Assembly: GCA_018697195.1 (NCBI GenBank)
Contig: CM031858.1
Coordinates: 130,123,765-130,187,764, forward strand
From: Certhia americana
Taxonomy: Eukaryota > Chordata > Aves > Passeriformes > Certhiidae
Direction: 5' to 3'
DNA length: 64,000 nt
Position 1 is the first letter of the stretch. Each line of letters starts with the position of its first letter. A program made the translations under genes and the position numbers. The notes beneath the pieces are model-generated. The model had not been told where the DNA came from, ran no database searches, and was given only the letters and a program-made list of their open reading frames with translations. This document shows, piece after piece, positions 53,201-61,889 of the stretch.

Positions 53201-53387
53201 TAAGAGGTTAAGATGAAAAGCAAGAAACTAACAGAGAAAATTACAGGTCAGATAAAGGCAAATGTGATAAGGATCAATGCCATTTAAGAGGGTGAAAACA
53301 CAAAGAAGGAATTCTTTCAGGTGGGATGGAGAGAGAAAAAAAAGGGATGGAGAAGATGATGAGATGGTTAGAAGGACATAGAAGAGA
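50223..53387. other. Non-coding span, no exon recognised
   Basis: No exon or transposon identified. A GT-rich patch lies near 53043-53068. Confidence 0.55.
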
Positions 53388-56128
53388 AAGTGCAGGATGA
53401 GAACCTGTCAAGCATCACACATCTAAACATAGTGACATGAGTTCATTCTAGATTACAGGGAAGCACGAGGAGTGACAGGAAGAAGCAAAGAAAATGAATA
53501 TGCAGGATCTCATGCTGCTTCAAGGACAGTAAATACAAGAGGCAGGGTAGAAAGAACAGGAAAACGGTCATGGCAATCACATCTGTAGTGTCTTCTGTCT
53601 GCGGAGGACCTCAGTTTAAAGAAATTCCAAATGCTGAGCTCAGGAGGAATCAAAACACAGATTTACCACCAGAGGATTGAAGCAAAGAGAGAAGAGCCAA
53701 AGCATGTTTCCATGTCCCCAGCTCAGTTTCAGAGTGAAAATCTAAATCAGCTCCCTCGACTTAATGTGTATTTTTCCTGTTTTACAATACAGCAGATGAC
53801 AATAGAACCTGGCTCACCTATAGCCTAGGCAAGGCAGGTATGAGCTGAAGCAATCAAAACCACTGGAAACTGTGCAAAAATAAGACATGAAAAGAATTAA
53901 ATAGATGGGAAAAAATTCCAAAGGTTCCATATATTTTGTGTAATTTAATTTTCTTAGGACTTCTTAGCTCCAGTTTTAAGTAATGCTTCCACAATACCAT
54001 TATCCCCCCACTTACTTCCTTGCAGTTCCTCATATCAGGTGGGAGATCACACCTTTCCAACTTTAAGAAGAATTTTGTTAACACATACACTTTTGTAGGC
54101 ACTGTTTTTTTACACTTTGGTAGAAGATACACAGCTTTGGGGAGGGAAGAATCTGAAATAATTAAAATAAGCAAAACCTCTGGATACTGACAATCCAGAA
54201 CGATAAGTTTGTAACCTGAAAATTATCCCTACAAAAAGCTGAAATTAGGAGAATGGGTGAAATATCCACAGTCACTACCTGATTATTGAAACATTACAGA
54301 TATTTTTAGGCATGGGATTTTTTAACATAGAAAAAATATAACTTGGTTTGTTTACTAAATAAACAACTGCATATTTTTTTAAGTTTTGTGTAATGACAAA
54401 CATGCCCACTATTATTGCATTATACTAAGGTCTGTTTCTGTCTCCTGACAACAATCTCTAAAGGAGAGAAAGAATGATGGTTAAACTGGAAAGCATCAGT
54501 ACCATGAACTTGTAAATAAAAAGGAAAGTTACATCTGCAGGGCTTAGATATAATATGTAAATAGAGAACAAATGCCACCATGCAGATACGTGATGCATGT
54601 TTGTACAGAGAAAGCTCCGAAAAAGAACACAACATCCCTGTATTTATTCATTGTAATGTATTACAGCACAACGTTTAGGGCACATAATAGGCAGTCAAAT
54701 GTAATAGCTTTCATATAATATTAGTTACAGAAAGCATTTTGAAGATTGAAGAGCAACAGTAATAACATTTTCAACATTACCTTAATAATCATTTCAGCAT
54801 ATTCATTCTGGAAAAAAGAATCTTGCATGAAAAATGACTTTTGGTTCTCCCACCTTCAAATGTGCAATTTTTTTCCTTATGAAAAAATGAAAATTGAGCA
54901 GGCTGGATTTTTCACTTCTCTGCTAACTATACATAACTATACAGTTATGCATGTAAATAATTTGATGTGCATTTATAATTTTACTGAAATCAAGGTGTGG
55001 GATGATCCATATCGGATGTAGAAAACTGAAGTTGCACAATAAATGCAACAAGGTACACTATAAAACAGCAGATACAAAGAAGGCTTAAGAAAAAACAACG
55101 TCTAGAGCACAACTGAGCAATTATGTCTGTTTATGTACTGATGGTTTGAGCACAAATATTTAAAACAATCACTATTCTTTTCATTGCAATGATTATTGTT
55201 GCTTATTCCAGTAACTTTAAAAAAACCCAAACTAGCTAACAAAAAAAAAAAAAAAAAAAACCAAAAAACCAAAACAGATCAAACACAATGCATTAGAAAT
55301 GCAATGGATAATTTGTGGATCATTAAAAACATAAGCAACTCCTTTCACTATCCAATAAATCAACAACTGCAGAAGAATTTCAGATTTTATTAAAAAGTCC
55401 AGGAAACTCATAAATCTCATTTTACACTCCAACAGGACACACATACTGGTTTTGTTTTTCCTTGCAGCTGCCAGACTAGCAATCAGTTCTCCTGATCTGC
55501 TGTTGGCCTGACTGCAGGTCAGGAGACATGCAGCCTCCAAGGGGCAATTCCCATAAACCTCCAAGGGGCAATTCCCATAAGTCTCTTCCATAGAAGAGTT
55601 ACCAGTTCTGTAATCACAGAAGTAATTAGGTTTGAAAAAGCCCCTGACATCATCGAGACCAACCTCTGTTTGAACACCACCATGTCAACTAGACCCTGGC
55701 ACAAAGCACCACGTCCAGTCTTTCCTTAAACACCTCCAGGGACAGTGACTCCACCACGTCCTGGGCAGCCTGTTCGAATGCCTAAGCAGCCTTTCTGTGA
55801 AAACACTCCTCCTGATGTCCAACCTAAACCTTCCCTGGCACAGCTTGAGGCCACGTCCTCCCGTCCTATCTCCGGTTCCCTGGCAAAGACCCTCCCCTGG
55901 CTACAGCCACCTTTCATCAGGTAACGATAGGGAGCGATAAGGTCACCCCGAGCCTCCTCTTGTCCAAGCTGACCTCAGGCCCCGCGGTCTCTCTGAAGGT
56001 GCCCGGTGCCGCTGCAGCGGGGCTGGCGGCGGGGCGGGCGATGGAGGGCAGAGCTCCTGCTGGGGAGCCCTGACACCGCCCGCCGTGCCCCGGGACAATC
56101 GGTACTGACACCGCCAGCCGTGCCCCGG
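53388..56128. repeat. Copy 1 of a 2.74 kb duplicated block, left of the assembly gap
   Basis: The whole block reappears at 56799-59538. This copy is clean: regular homopolymers and well-formed CR1 wording. It contains non-coding AT-rich DNA, an A20 run (55241-55260), a CR1 copy (55600-55985) and the first one to two units of minisatellite A (56080-56128) before the Ns. It is probably the correct, polished version of the locus. Confidence 0.9.
55600..55985 (-). mobile_element. CR1 LINE 3' fragment, minus strand
   Basis: The reverse complement shows typical CR1 3' wording, including a tract equivalent to CACCTCCAGGGACAGTGACT (55730-55749 on plus) and GGCAGCCTGTTCGAATGC (55763-55780). It is unusually CpG-rich for a CR1, including CACCACGTCC and ACGATAGGGAGCGATAAGG, implying a young copy or little CpG decay beside the GC-rich satellite. 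Its far (5') end merges into GC-rich unique sequence at about 55985. Confidence 0.85.
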
Positions 56129-56715
56129 NNNNNNNNNNNNNNNNNNNNNNNNNNNNNNNNNNNNNNNNNNNNNNNNNNNNNNNNNNNNNNNNNNNNNNNN
56201 NNNNNNNNNNNNNNNNNNNNNNNNNNNNNNNNNNNNNNNNNNNNNNNNNNNNNNNNNNNNNNNNNNNNNNNNNNNNNNNNNNNNNNNNNNNNNNNNNNNN
56301 NNNNNNNNNNNNNNNNNNNNNNNNNNNNNNNNNNNNNNNNNNNNNNNNNNNNNNNNNNNNNNNNNNNNNNNNNNNNNNNNNNNNNNNNNNNNNNNNNNNN
56401 NNNNNNNNNNNNNNNNNNNNNNNNNNNNNNNNNNNNNNNNNNNNNNNNNNNNNNNNNNNNNNNNNNNNNNNNNNNNNNNNNNNNNNNNNNNNNNNNNNNN
56501 NNNNNNNNNNNNNNNNNNNNNNNNNNNNNNNNNNNNNNNNNNNNNNNNNNNNNNNNNNNNNNNNNNNNNNNNNNNNNNNNNNNNNNNNNNNNNNNNNNNN
56601 NNNNNNNNNNNNNNNNNNNNNNNNNNNNNNNNNNNNNNNNNNNNNNNNNNNNNNNNNNNNNNNNNNNNNNNNNNNNNNNNNNNNNNNNNNNNNNNNNNNN
56701 NNNNNNNNNNNNNNN
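56129..56715. other. Assembly gap (587 N)
   Basis: 587 undetermined bases. Any protein frame drawn across it is artificial. The left edge stops inside a minisatellite A unit, which explains why the assembly broke here. Confidence 0.99.
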
Positions 56716-56798
56716 GTCGTCGCCGGCCCGCTGCGGCGCGCGGGCCTGCGCGCGTCGCGAACGAGAGCGCTGCATTCTGCGCGTGCCTCTGCCAAGCG
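56716..56798. other. Orphan GC-rich sequence at the gap's right edge
   Basis: About 83 bases of CpG-rich sequence (CGCGCGGGCCTGCGCGCGTC near 56736) match neither the satellite nor the duplicated block. It may be displaced sequence from elsewhere or from a noisy read end. Confidence 0.6.
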
Positions 56799-59538
56799 AA
56801 AGTGCAGGATGAGACACTGTCAGCAATAACACATCTAAACATAGTGACATGAGTTCATTAGGATACACGGAAGCCCGAGGGAGTGACAGGAAGAAGCAAA
56901 GAAAAATTGAATATGCAGGATCGCATGCTGCTTCAAGGGCAGTAAATACAAGAGCAGGGGAGAAGACAGGGAAAAACGGTCATGGCAATACATCTGTAGT
57001 GTCTTCTGTCTGCGGAGGACCTCAGTTTAACAAGAATTCCACAATGCTTGAGCTCAGGAGGAATCAAACCACCAGATTTACACCAGAGAGATTGAAGAAA
57101 GAGAGAAGAGCAAAGCCATGTTTCCTGTCCCAAGCTTCAGTTTCAGAGTGAAAATCTAAATCAGCTCCCTCGAATTAATGTGTATTTTTCGGTTTACAAT
57201 ACAGCAGAGACAAATTAGAACATGGATCACCTATAGCATAGGCAAGGAGGTATGAGTGAAGCATTTCAAACCCATGGAAACTGTGCAAAAATAAGACATG
57301 AAAGAATAAATAGATGGCGAAAAAAATTCCAAAGGTTCCAATATTTTGTGTAATTTCAATTTTCTAGGATTCTTAGGGCTTCCAGTTTTAAGTAATGGCC
57401 TTCCACAATACAATTCTCCCCCCACTTAATTCCTTGCAGTTCTCATATCGGTGGGGAAGGCAAAAAAAAAAAAAATCACACCTTTCCAACTTTAAGAAGA
57501 ATTTTGTTAACACATACATTTTGTAGGCACGTTTTTTACACTTTGGATTTAGAAGATTACACAGTTTTGGGGAGGGAAGAATCTGAAATATAAAAATAAG
57601 CAAAACCTGGATTACTGACAATCAAGAACATAGTTTGTAACATGAAAATTATCCATACAAAAAGCTGAATTAGGGAGAAGGGGTGGAAATATACACAGCA
57701 CTACTGATTATGAAACATTACAGATATTTTAGGCATGGAGTGTTTAGCATAGAACAAAATATAACTTGGATTTGTTTAATAAATAAACAATGCATATTTT
57801 TTACAGTTTTGGAATGACAAACATGCCCACTATTATTGAATATACTAGGTCTGTTTCTGTCTCCTGAAACAACTCTAAAGGAGAGAAAGAATGTATGGTT
57901 AAACTCGGAAAGCATCAGTAACCATGAACTTGTAAATAAAAAAGGAAGTTACATCTGCGGGATAGATATAATATGTAAATAGAGACAAAATGCAACCATG
58001 AAGCTTTACGTGATGCATGGGTTGTCCAAGACAGCTCCGAAAAAGAAACAACACCCTGTATTTATTCATCGTCAGTAAAAGCACAACGTTTCGGCAATAA
58101 TAGGCAGTCAAATGTAATAGCTTCATACTATATTTAGTTCAGAGAAGCATTTTGAAAGATTGAAGAGCAAACAGTAATAACATTTTAAACATTTACCTTA
58201 ATAATCATTTCAGCATATCATCTGGAAAAAAAGACATTATTGCATGAAAATGACTTTTGGGTTCCACACCTTCAAAATGTGCAATGTTTCCTTATGAAAA
58301 AATGAAATTGAGCAGGCTGGATTTCACTTCTCTGCTAAACTATACATAATATACAAGTATGCATTGTAACTAATTTGATGTGCATTTATAATGTACTGAA
58401 ATCAAGTGGGGATGATCCATTTTCGGTTTTTGGATGTAGAAAAACCGAAGTTGCCCAATAATGCACAAGGTACATCTAAAACGCAGATTACAAAGAAGGC
58501 TTAAGAAAAACAACGTCTAGAGCACACCTGAGCCATTATGTCGGTTGATGTACTGATGGTTGAGCACAAATCTTTAAAAACAATCATATTCTTTTCATTG
58601 CAATGATTAGGTTGCTTTCAGTAACTTTAAAAAAAACCAACTAGCTAAACAACAAAAAAAAAAAAAAACAAACCAAAAACCAAAACAGATCAAAACAGCA
58701 TTAGAATGCAATGGATAACTTTGTGGATCATTAAAACCTACGCAACTCCTTTCACTATCCAATTACAATCAACAACTGCAGAAAATTTCAGATTTAATTT
58801 AAAAAGGTCCAGGCAACTCAATAACTCTCATTTTTACACTCCAAAAGACACACCTTACTGGTTTTGTTTCCTTGCAGCTGCCAGACTAGCAATCAGTTTC
58901 CTGATATGCGGTTGGCCTGACTGAGGGTCAGGAGACAGCAGCCTCCAAGGGGCCATTCCCATAAACCTACCAAGGCGGCAATTCCATAAGTCTCTTTCAA
59001 AGAGCGTTACCCGTTCTGTAATCACAGAAATAATTAGGTTTGAAAAAAGCACCCTTTGAATCATCGAGACAACCTTGTTTGAACCACCACCAGGTCACTA
59101 GACCTGGCACAAAGCACCACGTCCTAGCTTTCCTTAAACACCTCCAGGACAGTGACTCACCACGTCCTGGGGCCGCCTGTTCGAATGCCTAAGCAGCAGT
59201 TTCTGTGAAAACCCACTCCTCCTGATTCAACCTAAACCTCCATGGCACAGCTGAGGCCAAGTCCTCCTTACGATCTCCGGTCCCTGGCCAAAGACCCTCC
59301 CCTGGCTACAGCCACTTTCATCAGGAACCGATAGGGAGCGATAAGGTCACCCGAGCACCCTCTGTCCAAGCTGACCTCAGGCCCCGCGGGTCTCTCTGAA
59401 GGTTGCCCGGTTGCCGCTGCTAGCGGGGGGCTGGCGGACGGGGCGGGCGATGGAGGGGCAAGCTCCCTGCTGGGGAGCCCTGACACCGCCCGCGTCGCCC
59501 GGGACAATCGGGGATGACACCGCCAGGCCGTGCCCCGG
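56799..59538. repeat. Copy 2 of the 2.74 kb block, error-rich, probably a false duplication
   Basis: It starts at AAGTGCAGGATGAG, as at 53390, and follows copy 1 in the same order through the A-rich tract (58648-58670), the CR1 fragment (about 59010-59400) and the first minisatellite A units. Total length is almost identical (2740 against 2741). Differences are mostly single-base insertions and deletions every 10 to 20 bases, many at homopolymers, which is typical of raw long reads rather than biological divergence. It contains no gene. Confidence 0.9.
59010..59400 (-). mobile_element. CR1 fragment, duplicate of the one at 55600
   Basis: Same element as 55600-55985, carried in the duplicated block with scattered indels (for example CACCTCCAGGACAGTGACTC). 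It should not be counted as an independent insertion. Confidence 0.85.
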
Positions 59539-60195
59539 GGGACAATCGGTACTGACAACGCCAGCCGTGCCCGGGACAATCGGTCCTGACACGCCAGCCG
59601 TGCCCCGGGGAAAATCGGTATGACAGCGGGCCAGCGTGCCCGGGACCAATCGGACCCCCCATGACCGCAGCCGTGACCCGGGACAATCGGGCAGGACTGC
59701 ACCGCCAGCCGTGCCCGGGCAATCGGTACTGACAGCGGGCCGCCGTGCCCCGGGACAATCGGTTTACTGAGAGCGGGCCAGCCTGGCCCGGGACCATCGG
59801 GACTGAGAGAGGGCCAGCCGGCCCCGGACAATCGGACTGAGGAGCGGGCCAGCCTGGCCGCGGTACAATCGGGTGGATGAGAGCGGGCAAGCCGGTGCAC
59901 GGGAAATCGGTAATGACCAGCGGGCCAGCCGGTGCCCGGGACATCCGTACTGACACCGCAGCCGTTTTTGCACCCGGGACAATCGGGAATGAGGAGCGGG
60001 CAACCCGTTGCCCCGGGGACATCGGGGTACTGAAACGCAGCAGTGCCCGGGACAATCGGGACTGACAGCGGGCCAGCAGTTGCATCCGGGGACAATGGGA
60101 CTGACGAGCGGGCCAGCCGTGCCACGGGACAATCGGTACTGCCGGCGGCCAGCCGTGCCCGGGACGCAATCGGTACTGAGAGCGGGGCCCGCGGG
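59480..60195. repeat. Minisatellite A, about 37-bp unit, about 19 copies
   Basis: A tandem array whose unit begins CCGGGACAATCGGTACTGAC and continues with AGCGGGCCAGCCGTGCC; some units have ACCGCCAGCC instead of AGCGGGCCAGCC. Unit length jitters by 1 to 3 bases and many single-base indels are present, as expected if this stretch is uncorrected read sequence. It begins at the end of the duplicated block in both copies. Long frames across it arise because the unit has few stop codons. Confidence 0.92.
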
Positions 60196-60224
60196 GCACC
60201 GTTAGGGCCCGTGTGCCGCGGATC
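60196..60224. other. Junction between the two minisatellites
   Basis: A short GC-rich stretch (GGGCACCGTTAGGGCCCGTG) that fits neither unit. Confidence 0.6.
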
Positions 60225-61300
60225 ACCTGTACGTCAGCTGTGCCCGCTGTGCCCCGGTTTACATTCGGCTGTCCCCGGTACAGTCGCTGTGACCCGGTAC
60301 ATCACAGTGCCCCGGTACGTTCATTGTGCCCACGTACGTTCGCTGTGCAGCTGTGCCGGTCATTCGCTGTGCCCGGTCTACATTCGCTGTTGCCACGGGT
60401 ACATTCACTGTGCCCCGTACATTCGCGTGCCCCCGGTACGATTCGCTGTGACCGGTACATTAATTGTGCCCCCCTTTCTGTGGATAATTCATTGTGCCCA
60501 CCATACATTCAGAGGCCCGGGTACATCTCGCGTAGTGCCCCGGTCCAATTCGCTGTGCCGGTACATTCGCTGTGCCCCGGTAACATTCACAGTGCCAGGT
60601 ACATTCGCTGTGCACCCGGTTTACATTCGCTCGGCCCCGGTACATTCGCTGTGCACCGGTACATTCATTGTGCCCCGTACGTTCGCCGGGCCCAGGTACA
60701 TTACTGTGCCATTACTTCGCTGTGCCCCGGTACATCATTGTGCCCCGGTACATGCGCTGTGCCCCGGTACATTCGCTGTGCCCCGGTAATTCGCTGTGCC
60801 AGTACCTTCCAGTGCCCCGGTACCATTCACTGTGCCACCCCCGGTACATTCGCTGTGACAAGTAAATTGCTGTGCCCCGGTTAATTCACTTGCCCCGGTA
60901 CATCGCTGTGCCCCGGTAAAGTCAGCGTGCCCGGTACTCACAGTGCCCCACGGTACATTCGCTGTGCCCCGGTTAAATTCGCTGTGCCCGGTGACATTCG
61001 GCTGTGCCCCGGTACATTATTGTGCCACCACGTACGTCGCCCGGGCCCGGTTACAATTCACGTGCCCCCCATACATTCGCGGTCGCCACGGTACATTCAT
61101 TGTGCCCGGTAAATTCGCGTGCCCCGTTACCATTCGCTGGCCACGGTACCTTAATGTGCCCCGGTGACATTCGAACTGTGCCAAGTAGTACATTCACAGT
61201 GCCCGGTTACATTAATGTGCCCCGGTTACATTCGCTGTGCCCCGGTACATGCACAGTGACCCGGTACATTCACTGTGTCCCCGTACGTTCGCCGGGCCCC
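60225..61300. repeat. Minisatellite B, 19-bp unit, about 55 copies
   Basis: A tandem array with unit CCCCGGTACATTCGCTGTG, including variants CATTCACTGTG, CATTCATTGTG and ACGTTCGCCGGGCC. Each unit has two CpG sites (CCGG and TTCGC), so the array is about 1 kb of dense CpG. A perfect unit contains no stop codon in any of six frames, which produces misleading frames of over 200 codons. It directly abuts CpG island 2. Confidence 0.93.
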
Positions 61301-61790
61301 GGTGCGCCGCCGCTCGGCTCCGGCCGCCCCCCGCTCTCCGCAGCCGCAGTTCCGGCGGTGGGAGGAAGCTCGGGCCCGCTCCGCTCCGCTCCGCTCCGCT
61401 CGCCGGGGGATGCGGGAGCGCTCCCGCCCCCGCGGCCGGCGGGAGGCGGGCGGCGGCGCGGGCGGGGCGGACGCGTCGCCCCGCAGAGAGCGGCGGGGGG
61501 ACCCAGCGGCGGGCGGCGGGCACAGGCCGGCGATGGAGGAAGGTGAGGGGCGGCTCCTCGGGCCGTGGAGCCGGGGCCGGGCGGAGGCGGTCGGGGCAGG
61601 CCGCTGGCTCAGGCCGGCGGCGTGGCCGCCCCTGGCGGTTTGTGCCCGGGCCGTGCCGGGACCGCCGCGCCCGGACGGAGGTGAAGCACCGGGCTGCAGG
61701 ACACGGGCGGCCTCCCGGGCCCAGCCCAAGGCAGCCCGTCCTTTGCAGCCCCGGGCGGGAGGCCAGGCCGGTCTCTGGGGGACATGGAGT
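61300..61790 (+). promoter_or_regulatory. CpG island 2: promoter and first exon of a rightward gene
   Basis: GC- and CpG-dense single-copy sequence beginning immediately after minisatellite B. It includes a (CCGCT)5 repeat at 61376-61400 and GC-box-like GGGCGGGGCGG around 61461-61471. A start codon with a strong donor follows at 61533-61548. There is no TATA box, as usual for CpG-island promoters. The transcription start is probably between 61350 and 61530. Confidence 0.75.
61533..61542 (+). CDS. Candidate first coding exon (M-E-E, phase-1 donor), unidentified gene
   Basis: The only visible coding part is ATGGAGGAAG, giving Met-Glu-Glu plus one base of the next codon. It is followed directly by the intron start GTGAGG (61543-61548), in the order AAG|GTGAGG, which is close to the vertebrate donor consensus. 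The start context is good (G at -3 and G at +4). Very short first coding exons ending in a phase-1 donor inside a CpG island are common. The presumed first intron carries a CR1 copy and continues past the window end. Three residues cannot identify the protein. Chance occurrence is possible, and a non-coding first exon using the same donor would look alike. Confidence 0.4.
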
Positions 61791-61889
61791 CTTTTTCTCT
61801 TCCCTCGCCTGGAATTGTGATGCCTTCGTGAGTGTACTTTCGCTTTGGCATCCCTCTGTGTGTTTTAGTCAGTCTTCCCGTTTCGTTAA

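What the first reader, a model, noticed from the sequence alone, without database searches (positions are those of the whole stretch)
53388..59538. A 2.74 kb block appears twice around the gap: probable false duplication from uncorrected long reads
Copy 1 (53388-56128) and copy 2 (56799-59538) run in the same order with nearly equal total length. Copy 2 differs mainly by single-base insertions and deletions, often in homopolymers. Copy 1 ends inside a minisatellite A unit at the gap, and copy 2 passes through the same units and continues. The simplest reading is that the two flanks overlap and the N gap has negative true size, so about 3.4 kb (56129-59538) should be removed. Any variant, repeat count or read-depth analysis here would be misled.
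Basis: partly seen in the sequence, partly recalled or inferred. Interest (0 to 1): 0.75.

Follow-up and report, generated by a model that had tools for sequence, protein, structure and literature searches.

The report
False duplication from noisy gap filling
The same stretch of an apparently bird-like genome appears twice around an assembly gap, once cleanly and once full of sequencing errors, so the second copy is very probably an assembly mistake and not biology.

Summary
53382-56128 and 56794-59538 are collinear copies on either side of a 587-N gap (56129-56715), and minisatellite A continues in register out of copy 2.

The differences do not look evolutionary: 214 indel events (187 single-base) against 78 substitutions, of which only 8 are transitions and 59 are A<->C or T>G. 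In 25 simulations of ordinary divergence the transition fraction was 0.62-0.70. Copy 2 is the damaged copy: a 24-bp tandem pair that is perfect in copy 1 is broken in copy 2.

My addition: the noisy stretch is larger than the duplicate. Similar noise runs through both minisatellites to about 61303. The patch is at least 56716-61303 (4.6 kb): an unplaced 78-bp GC-rich stub, the 2.7-kb duplicate and about 1.76 kb of probably real but error-laden sequence. Removing 56129-59538 would leave that 1.76 kb noisy.

Best explanation: a long-read extension of the right-hand contig ran past the true gap into sequence already present on the left, and the overlap was missed. This is a known artefact class. 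The platform is not settled, and no reads could be examined.

The parts
53382..56128 (+). Copy 1: clean copy of the 2.7-kb block, ending 59 bp into minisatellite A at the gap
   Evidence: Self-BLAST; holds a 24-bp tandem pair scored 100% by TRF at 55534-55580
56129..56715 (.). Run of 587 N
   Evidence: Script
56716..56793 (.). 78-bp GC-rich stub (78% GC, 17 CpG) of unknown origin, not homologous to the sequence left of copy 1
   Evidence: Local alignment; best score in the window 48 against 37-46 in 5 shuffles; no match in plasmids, none for one exact 24-mer in prokaryote contigs
56794..59538 (+). Copy 2: noisy duplicate of copy 1
   Evidence: 78 substitutions (8 transitions), 95 insertion and 119 deletion events against copy 1
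59480..60186 (+). Minisatellite A, units of about 35-37 bp, with noise like that of copy 2; its first 59 bp are part of the duplicate
   Evidence: TRF; consensus alignment: C>A 10, T>G 6, A>C 4 of 40 substitutions, 36 insertion and 37 deletion events
60210..61303 (+). Minisatellite B, about 55 units of 19 bp, with similar noise to its end
   Evidence: Consensus alignment: 49 insertion and 54 deletion events; after setting aside 28 substitutions at three recurrent columns, C>A 16 and T>G 8 of the other 47
56716..61303 (.). Inferred noisy gap-fill patch as a whole (right edge is a minimum)
   Evidence: Sum of the parts above; inference

Best explanation
The two copies are one locus written twice. 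The draft probably had a real gap between a left contig ending in minisatellite A (56128) and a right contig starting near the end of minisatellite B or in the CpG-rich stretch after it (about 61303 or later). One or a few long reads extended the right contig leftwards across B and A, the true gap content (about 1.76 kb), and 2.7 kb further into sequence that the left contig already held. With about 10% errors and a repeat at the contig end, the overlap was not recognised, so the extension was spliced in and leftover Ns were kept. Shown: collinearity, error-like differences, copy 2 as the damaged copy, noise to about 61303. Inferred: the direction of extension, the kind of tool, and that copy 2 is the same locus and not a recent tandem copy. 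The confidence is for the whole mechanism; that this is an assembly artefact of some kind I hold at about 0.95.
For: Collinear tandem copies flanking an N run. 8 of 78 substitutions are transitions and 59 of 78 are A<->C or T>G, a pattern kept under four scorings. In 25 simulations of natural divergence the transition fraction was 0.62-0.70 and substitutions numbered 200-247. P(8 or fewer transitions of 78) is 2e-6 if one third and 9e-14 if one half were expected. A 24-bp tandem pair perfect in copy 1 is broken in copy 2, and copy 2 has 56 CpG to copy 1's 37. Similar noise in arrays A and B. English et al. 2012 describe flank extension that reduces a gap and leaves Ns, and 'overfilled' gaps whose extensions have no identifiable overlap (passages). 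Ko et al. [quoted passage not shown]
Against: Insertions and deletions are balanced (131 vs 133 letters), unlike PacBio reads in the PaSS paper (9.42% vs 3.86%; simulated at those rates, about 221 insertion and 76 deletion events). The A<->C and T>G excess (0.76 of substitutions) exceeds all 75 simulated pairs (at most 0.405), and I found no paper that documents it. The 78-bp stub is unexplained. The two control repeat pairs in the window also gave many indels under this scoring (49 events to 46 substitutions), so the indel excess alone is weak evidence.
Confidence: 0.8

Rival explanations
1. Two overlapping contigs were scaffolded with an estimated gap between them (a negative gap), and the left end of the right contig is itself low-quality long-read assembly, with no separate gap-filling step.
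For: Gives the same layout of clean copy, Ns, noisy copy. English et al. mention negative gaps among overfilled gaps in one assembly (passage).
Against: The noise is followed only to about 61303, the end of array B, which suits a local patch; but nothing beyond that point could be measured, so this is weak.
Confidence: 0.12
2. A real, very recent tandem duplication exists, and its second copy is known only from noisy sequence.
For: Sequence errors alone cannot show that copy 2 is the same locus; once the error-like changes are set aside, only 8 transitions in 2614 aligned bases remain, as a recent copy would also give.
Against: It needs a duplication whose junction falls exactly in an assembly gap; copy 1 stops at the gap in array A and copy 2 continues the array in register. 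Inference from parsimony.
Confidence: 0.03
3. Both parental haplotypes of one locus were assembled side by side (heterotype false duplication), the differences being true polymorphism.
For: Ko et al. report this as the main source of false duplications in the assemblies they studied (passages).
Against: Transition fraction 0.10 against 0.62-0.70 simulated; about 12% difference led by single-base indels. That the noisy read came from the other haplotype is not excluded.
Confidence: 0.02
4. An old tandem duplication whose copies diverged by mutation.
For: About 88% identity between collinear tandem copies.
Against: Substitution spectrum and indel excess do not fit; the ordinary repeat pairs in the window gave 27 of 46 transitions.
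Confidence: 0.005

Closest known systems
Homotype false duplication (Ko et al. 2022, PMC9516828; abstract and passages seen)
   Same: Extra copy made by accumulated read errors, copies separated by an assembly gap
   Different: Their definition rests on k-mers and read depth, which could not be tested here
One-sided flank extension or overfilled gap in PBJelly (English et al. 2012, PMC3504050; passages seen; also PMC7757076, passages)
   Same: Long-read sequence spliced beside a gap without a recognised overlap to the other flank, Ns left
   Different: Overfilled gaps exceed the predicted size; here 587 N remain, so a reduced gap is as likely. The tool used for this assembly is unknown
False segmental duplication from haplotypes (Kelley and Salzberg 2010, PMC2864568; outline and abstract seen)
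   Same: An apparent recent duplication created by mis-assembly
   Different: Their cause is divergent chromosomes, not read errors

Membership tests
Homotype false duplication | Collinear copies separated by an assembly gap | tested here: met
Homotype false duplication | Differences are sequencing errors, not haplotype variants | tested here: met
   Indirectly, by spectrum: 8 of 78 transitions, single-base indels lead
Homotype false duplication | Read depth of one copy below haploid level, or no heterozygous k-mers | not testable with these tools
   No reads available; the genome search did not complete
Heterotype false duplication | Copy-specific k-mers present in accurate reads | not testable with these tools
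   No reads available
Heterotype false duplication or true old duplication | Transition-rich, substitution-led divergence (my own criterion) | tested here: not met
One-sided flank extension (PBJelly type) | Noisy sequence on one side of a remaining N run, joined to a clean contig | tested here: inconclusive
   Noisy from 56794 to about 61303; where the clean right contig begins could not be measured
Raw PacBio subread | Insertions exceed deletions | tested here: not met
   131 vs 133 letters against 9.42% vs 3.86% in PaSS Table 1
Nanopore reads (R9-type mismatch pattern) | Mismatches led by A>G (TAG>TGG, TAC>TGC) | tested here: not met
   A>G is 2 of 78; pattern from Weirather et al. 2017, passages; the opposite-strand form T>C is also 2 of 78

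The most novel reading that the evidence does not exclude
A real, near-identical 2.7-kb tandem duplication next to two minisatellites and a CpG-rich stretch, hidden under noisy gap-fill sequence and possibly variable in copy number between individuals.
Probability: 0.03. Interest if true: 0.25.

Novelty: already known. Interest (0 to 1): 0.12.

Why it matters
It matters to users of this assembly. The duplicate, the gap and the noisy arrays would yield false copy-number, variant and repeat-count calls just before a CpG-rich stretch that looks like a promoter. It also illustrates a check that needs no reads: tandem copies flanking an N run whose differences are poor in transitions and led by single-base indels are suspect.

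Tried and rejected
Tried without result. Placing the 78-bp stub: window alignment (score 48 vs 37-46 in 5 shuffles), plasmids, one exact 24-mer in prokaryote contigs; it was not searched in phages, E. coli or any vertebrate collection. Other copies of the block in the window as an outgroup: only array A units and A-rich or T-rich matches. Rfam: 0 matches at gathering score. Pfam on three ORFs: the only row was one match below its cut-off (E 0.017, 15.4 bits against 27). Of five paper searches, the one on substitution bias and dyes listed five papers, none on the point by title and abstract; those gave leads.

Rejected. Old duplication and plain haplotype duplication, by spectrum. Nanopore R9-type mismatches as described by Weirather et al. 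2017 (TAG>TGG and TAC>TGC lead; passages), since A>G and T>C are 2 of 78 each; a lead only, other chemistries differ. The 'loose homopolymer' mismatches that paper reports for PacBio subreads are weakly present: 46 of 78 substituted bases equal a neighbour, 32.3 expected.

Full report
Observation. The window has one N run, 56129-56715, 587 bases. On either side lie two same-strand collinear blocks, 53382-56128 and 56794-59538, 88.2% identical by self-BLAST with E=0. Copy 1 stops 59 bp into minisatellite A. Copy 2 passes the equivalent base at 59538 and continues through A (to 60186) and then B (to 61303).

What the differences are. A global alignment gives 2536 matches, 78 substitutions, 95 insertion events and 119 deletion events; 187 of the 214 indel events are single-base. 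Substitutions are C>A 23, A>C 21, T>G 15, and 19 others; 8 of 78 are transitions. Four scorings change the totals (indel events 168-214, substitutions 78-139, transitions 8-30), but indel events outnumber substitutions each time and A<->C exceeds all transitions together each time. In 25 simulations of natural divergence of copy 1, aligned the same way, transitions were 0.62-0.70 of substitutions and substitutions numbered 200-247. A BLAST of the rest of the window against itself (bases 1-260 and 53382-61310 masked; E at most 1e-8, 100 columns or more) left two ordinary repeat pairs; they gave 27 transitions among 46 substitutions but also 49 indel events. With this gap-friendly scoring an indel excess by itself is therefore weak evidence, and the lack of transitions is the stronger sign.

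Which copy is bad. Copy 1 holds a 24-bp tandem pair that TRF scores at 100% (55534-55580); the same place in copy 2 (from 58939) is broken by substitutions and indels. Copy 2 has 56 CpG against 37 in copy 1, as expected if random errors fall on CpG-poor sequence (inference).

How far the noise reaches. Aligned to its own consensus, array A (59480-60186) shows C>A 10, T>G 6 and A>C 4 among 40 substitutions, C/G exchanges 16 (partly recurrent at single columns, so perhaps real), transitions 3, with 36 insertion and 37 deletion events. Array B was aligned over 60210-61303. I set aside 28 substitutions at three columns with recurrent variants as likely real unit types. The other 47 include C>A 16, T>G 8, A>C 4 and 11 transitions, so the skew is weaker there than in copy 2; indels are 49 insertion and 54 deletion events. 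Events per 150 bp are 14-27 in the seven bins from 60245 to 61294, so the noise reaches the last units of B. A real minisatellite also varies between units, so the arrays alone would not prove sequencing error; the shared C>A and T>G bias is what ties them to copy 2. Beyond 61303 no repeat exists to measure it by. The patch is thus at least about 4.6 kb: 78-bp stub, 2745-bp duplicate, about 1.76 kb of new sequence.

Best explanation. A right-hand contig beginning near 61.3 kb was extended leftwards by one or a few long reads across B and A, the true gap content, and on into 2.7 kb that the left contig already had. The overlap was missed and leftover Ns were kept. English et al. 2012 (passages) say that flank-extension reads are incorporated and the gap reduced, with the 'appropriate number of N's' left; they define overfilled gaps as extensions without identifiable overlap whose summed length exceeds the predicted gap. 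If such a rule applied here, the predicted gap would have been about 5.2 kb (587 plus about 4.6 kb); that is inference. A bird-of-paradise assembly paper (passages) reports 236 gaps overfilled by PBJelly and says the extended or filled sequence was GC-rich. Ko et al. [quoted passage not shown]

Results against a simple story. Insertions and deletions are balanced (131 vs 133 letters), whereas PacBio reads in the PaSS paper's Table 1 show 9.42% vs 3.86% (passage); simulating those rates gave on average 221 insertion and 76 deletion events. A consensus of a few reads or another chemistry may explain this; untested. The A<->C plus T>G share is 0.76, above all 75 simulated pairs (at most 0.405), and the paper searches showed me no account of such a bias. 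A confusion of neighbouring dye channels is a recalled idea, not a result. The 78-bp stub remains unplaced. No reads or second assembly could be examined: the genome search was unanswered six times.

Organism. Part of the block and an ORF near 30 kb look to me like CR1-type LINE sequence, which suggests a bird or another sauropsid. This is recalled; Pfam gave no family for that ORF. It plays no part in the argument.

Verdict. It is an ordinary, known kind of assembly artefact.

Noticed in passing
1-239: The window opens with a T-dominated stretch (TRF: period 1, 70% matches) with scattered other bases, which could be another low-quality patch or a degenerate poly-T tract.
   Followed up: no
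56716-56793: 78 bp of 78% GC with 17 CpG sit between the N run and copy 2 and match neither the sequence left of copy 1 nor, beyond shuffle level by much, anything else in the window; perhaps a chimeric or low-quality read end.
   Followed up: partly
60210-61303: Minisatellite B has recurrent unit types under the noise: G>A in 16 units at one column, T>A in 7 and C>T in 5 at two others, which look like real variation.
   Followed up: partly
61300-61800: A CpG-rich stretch (72-89% GC, 7-22 CpG per 100 bp) follows array B directly and looks like a promoter; an ATG with a possible splice donor lies near 61533 (seen by eye).
   Followed up: no
54040-54060 and its copy-2 equivalent: Copy 2 carries a 15-bp insertion, mostly A, that copy 1 lacks; it could be a burst of inserted bases or a true length difference.
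   Followed up: no
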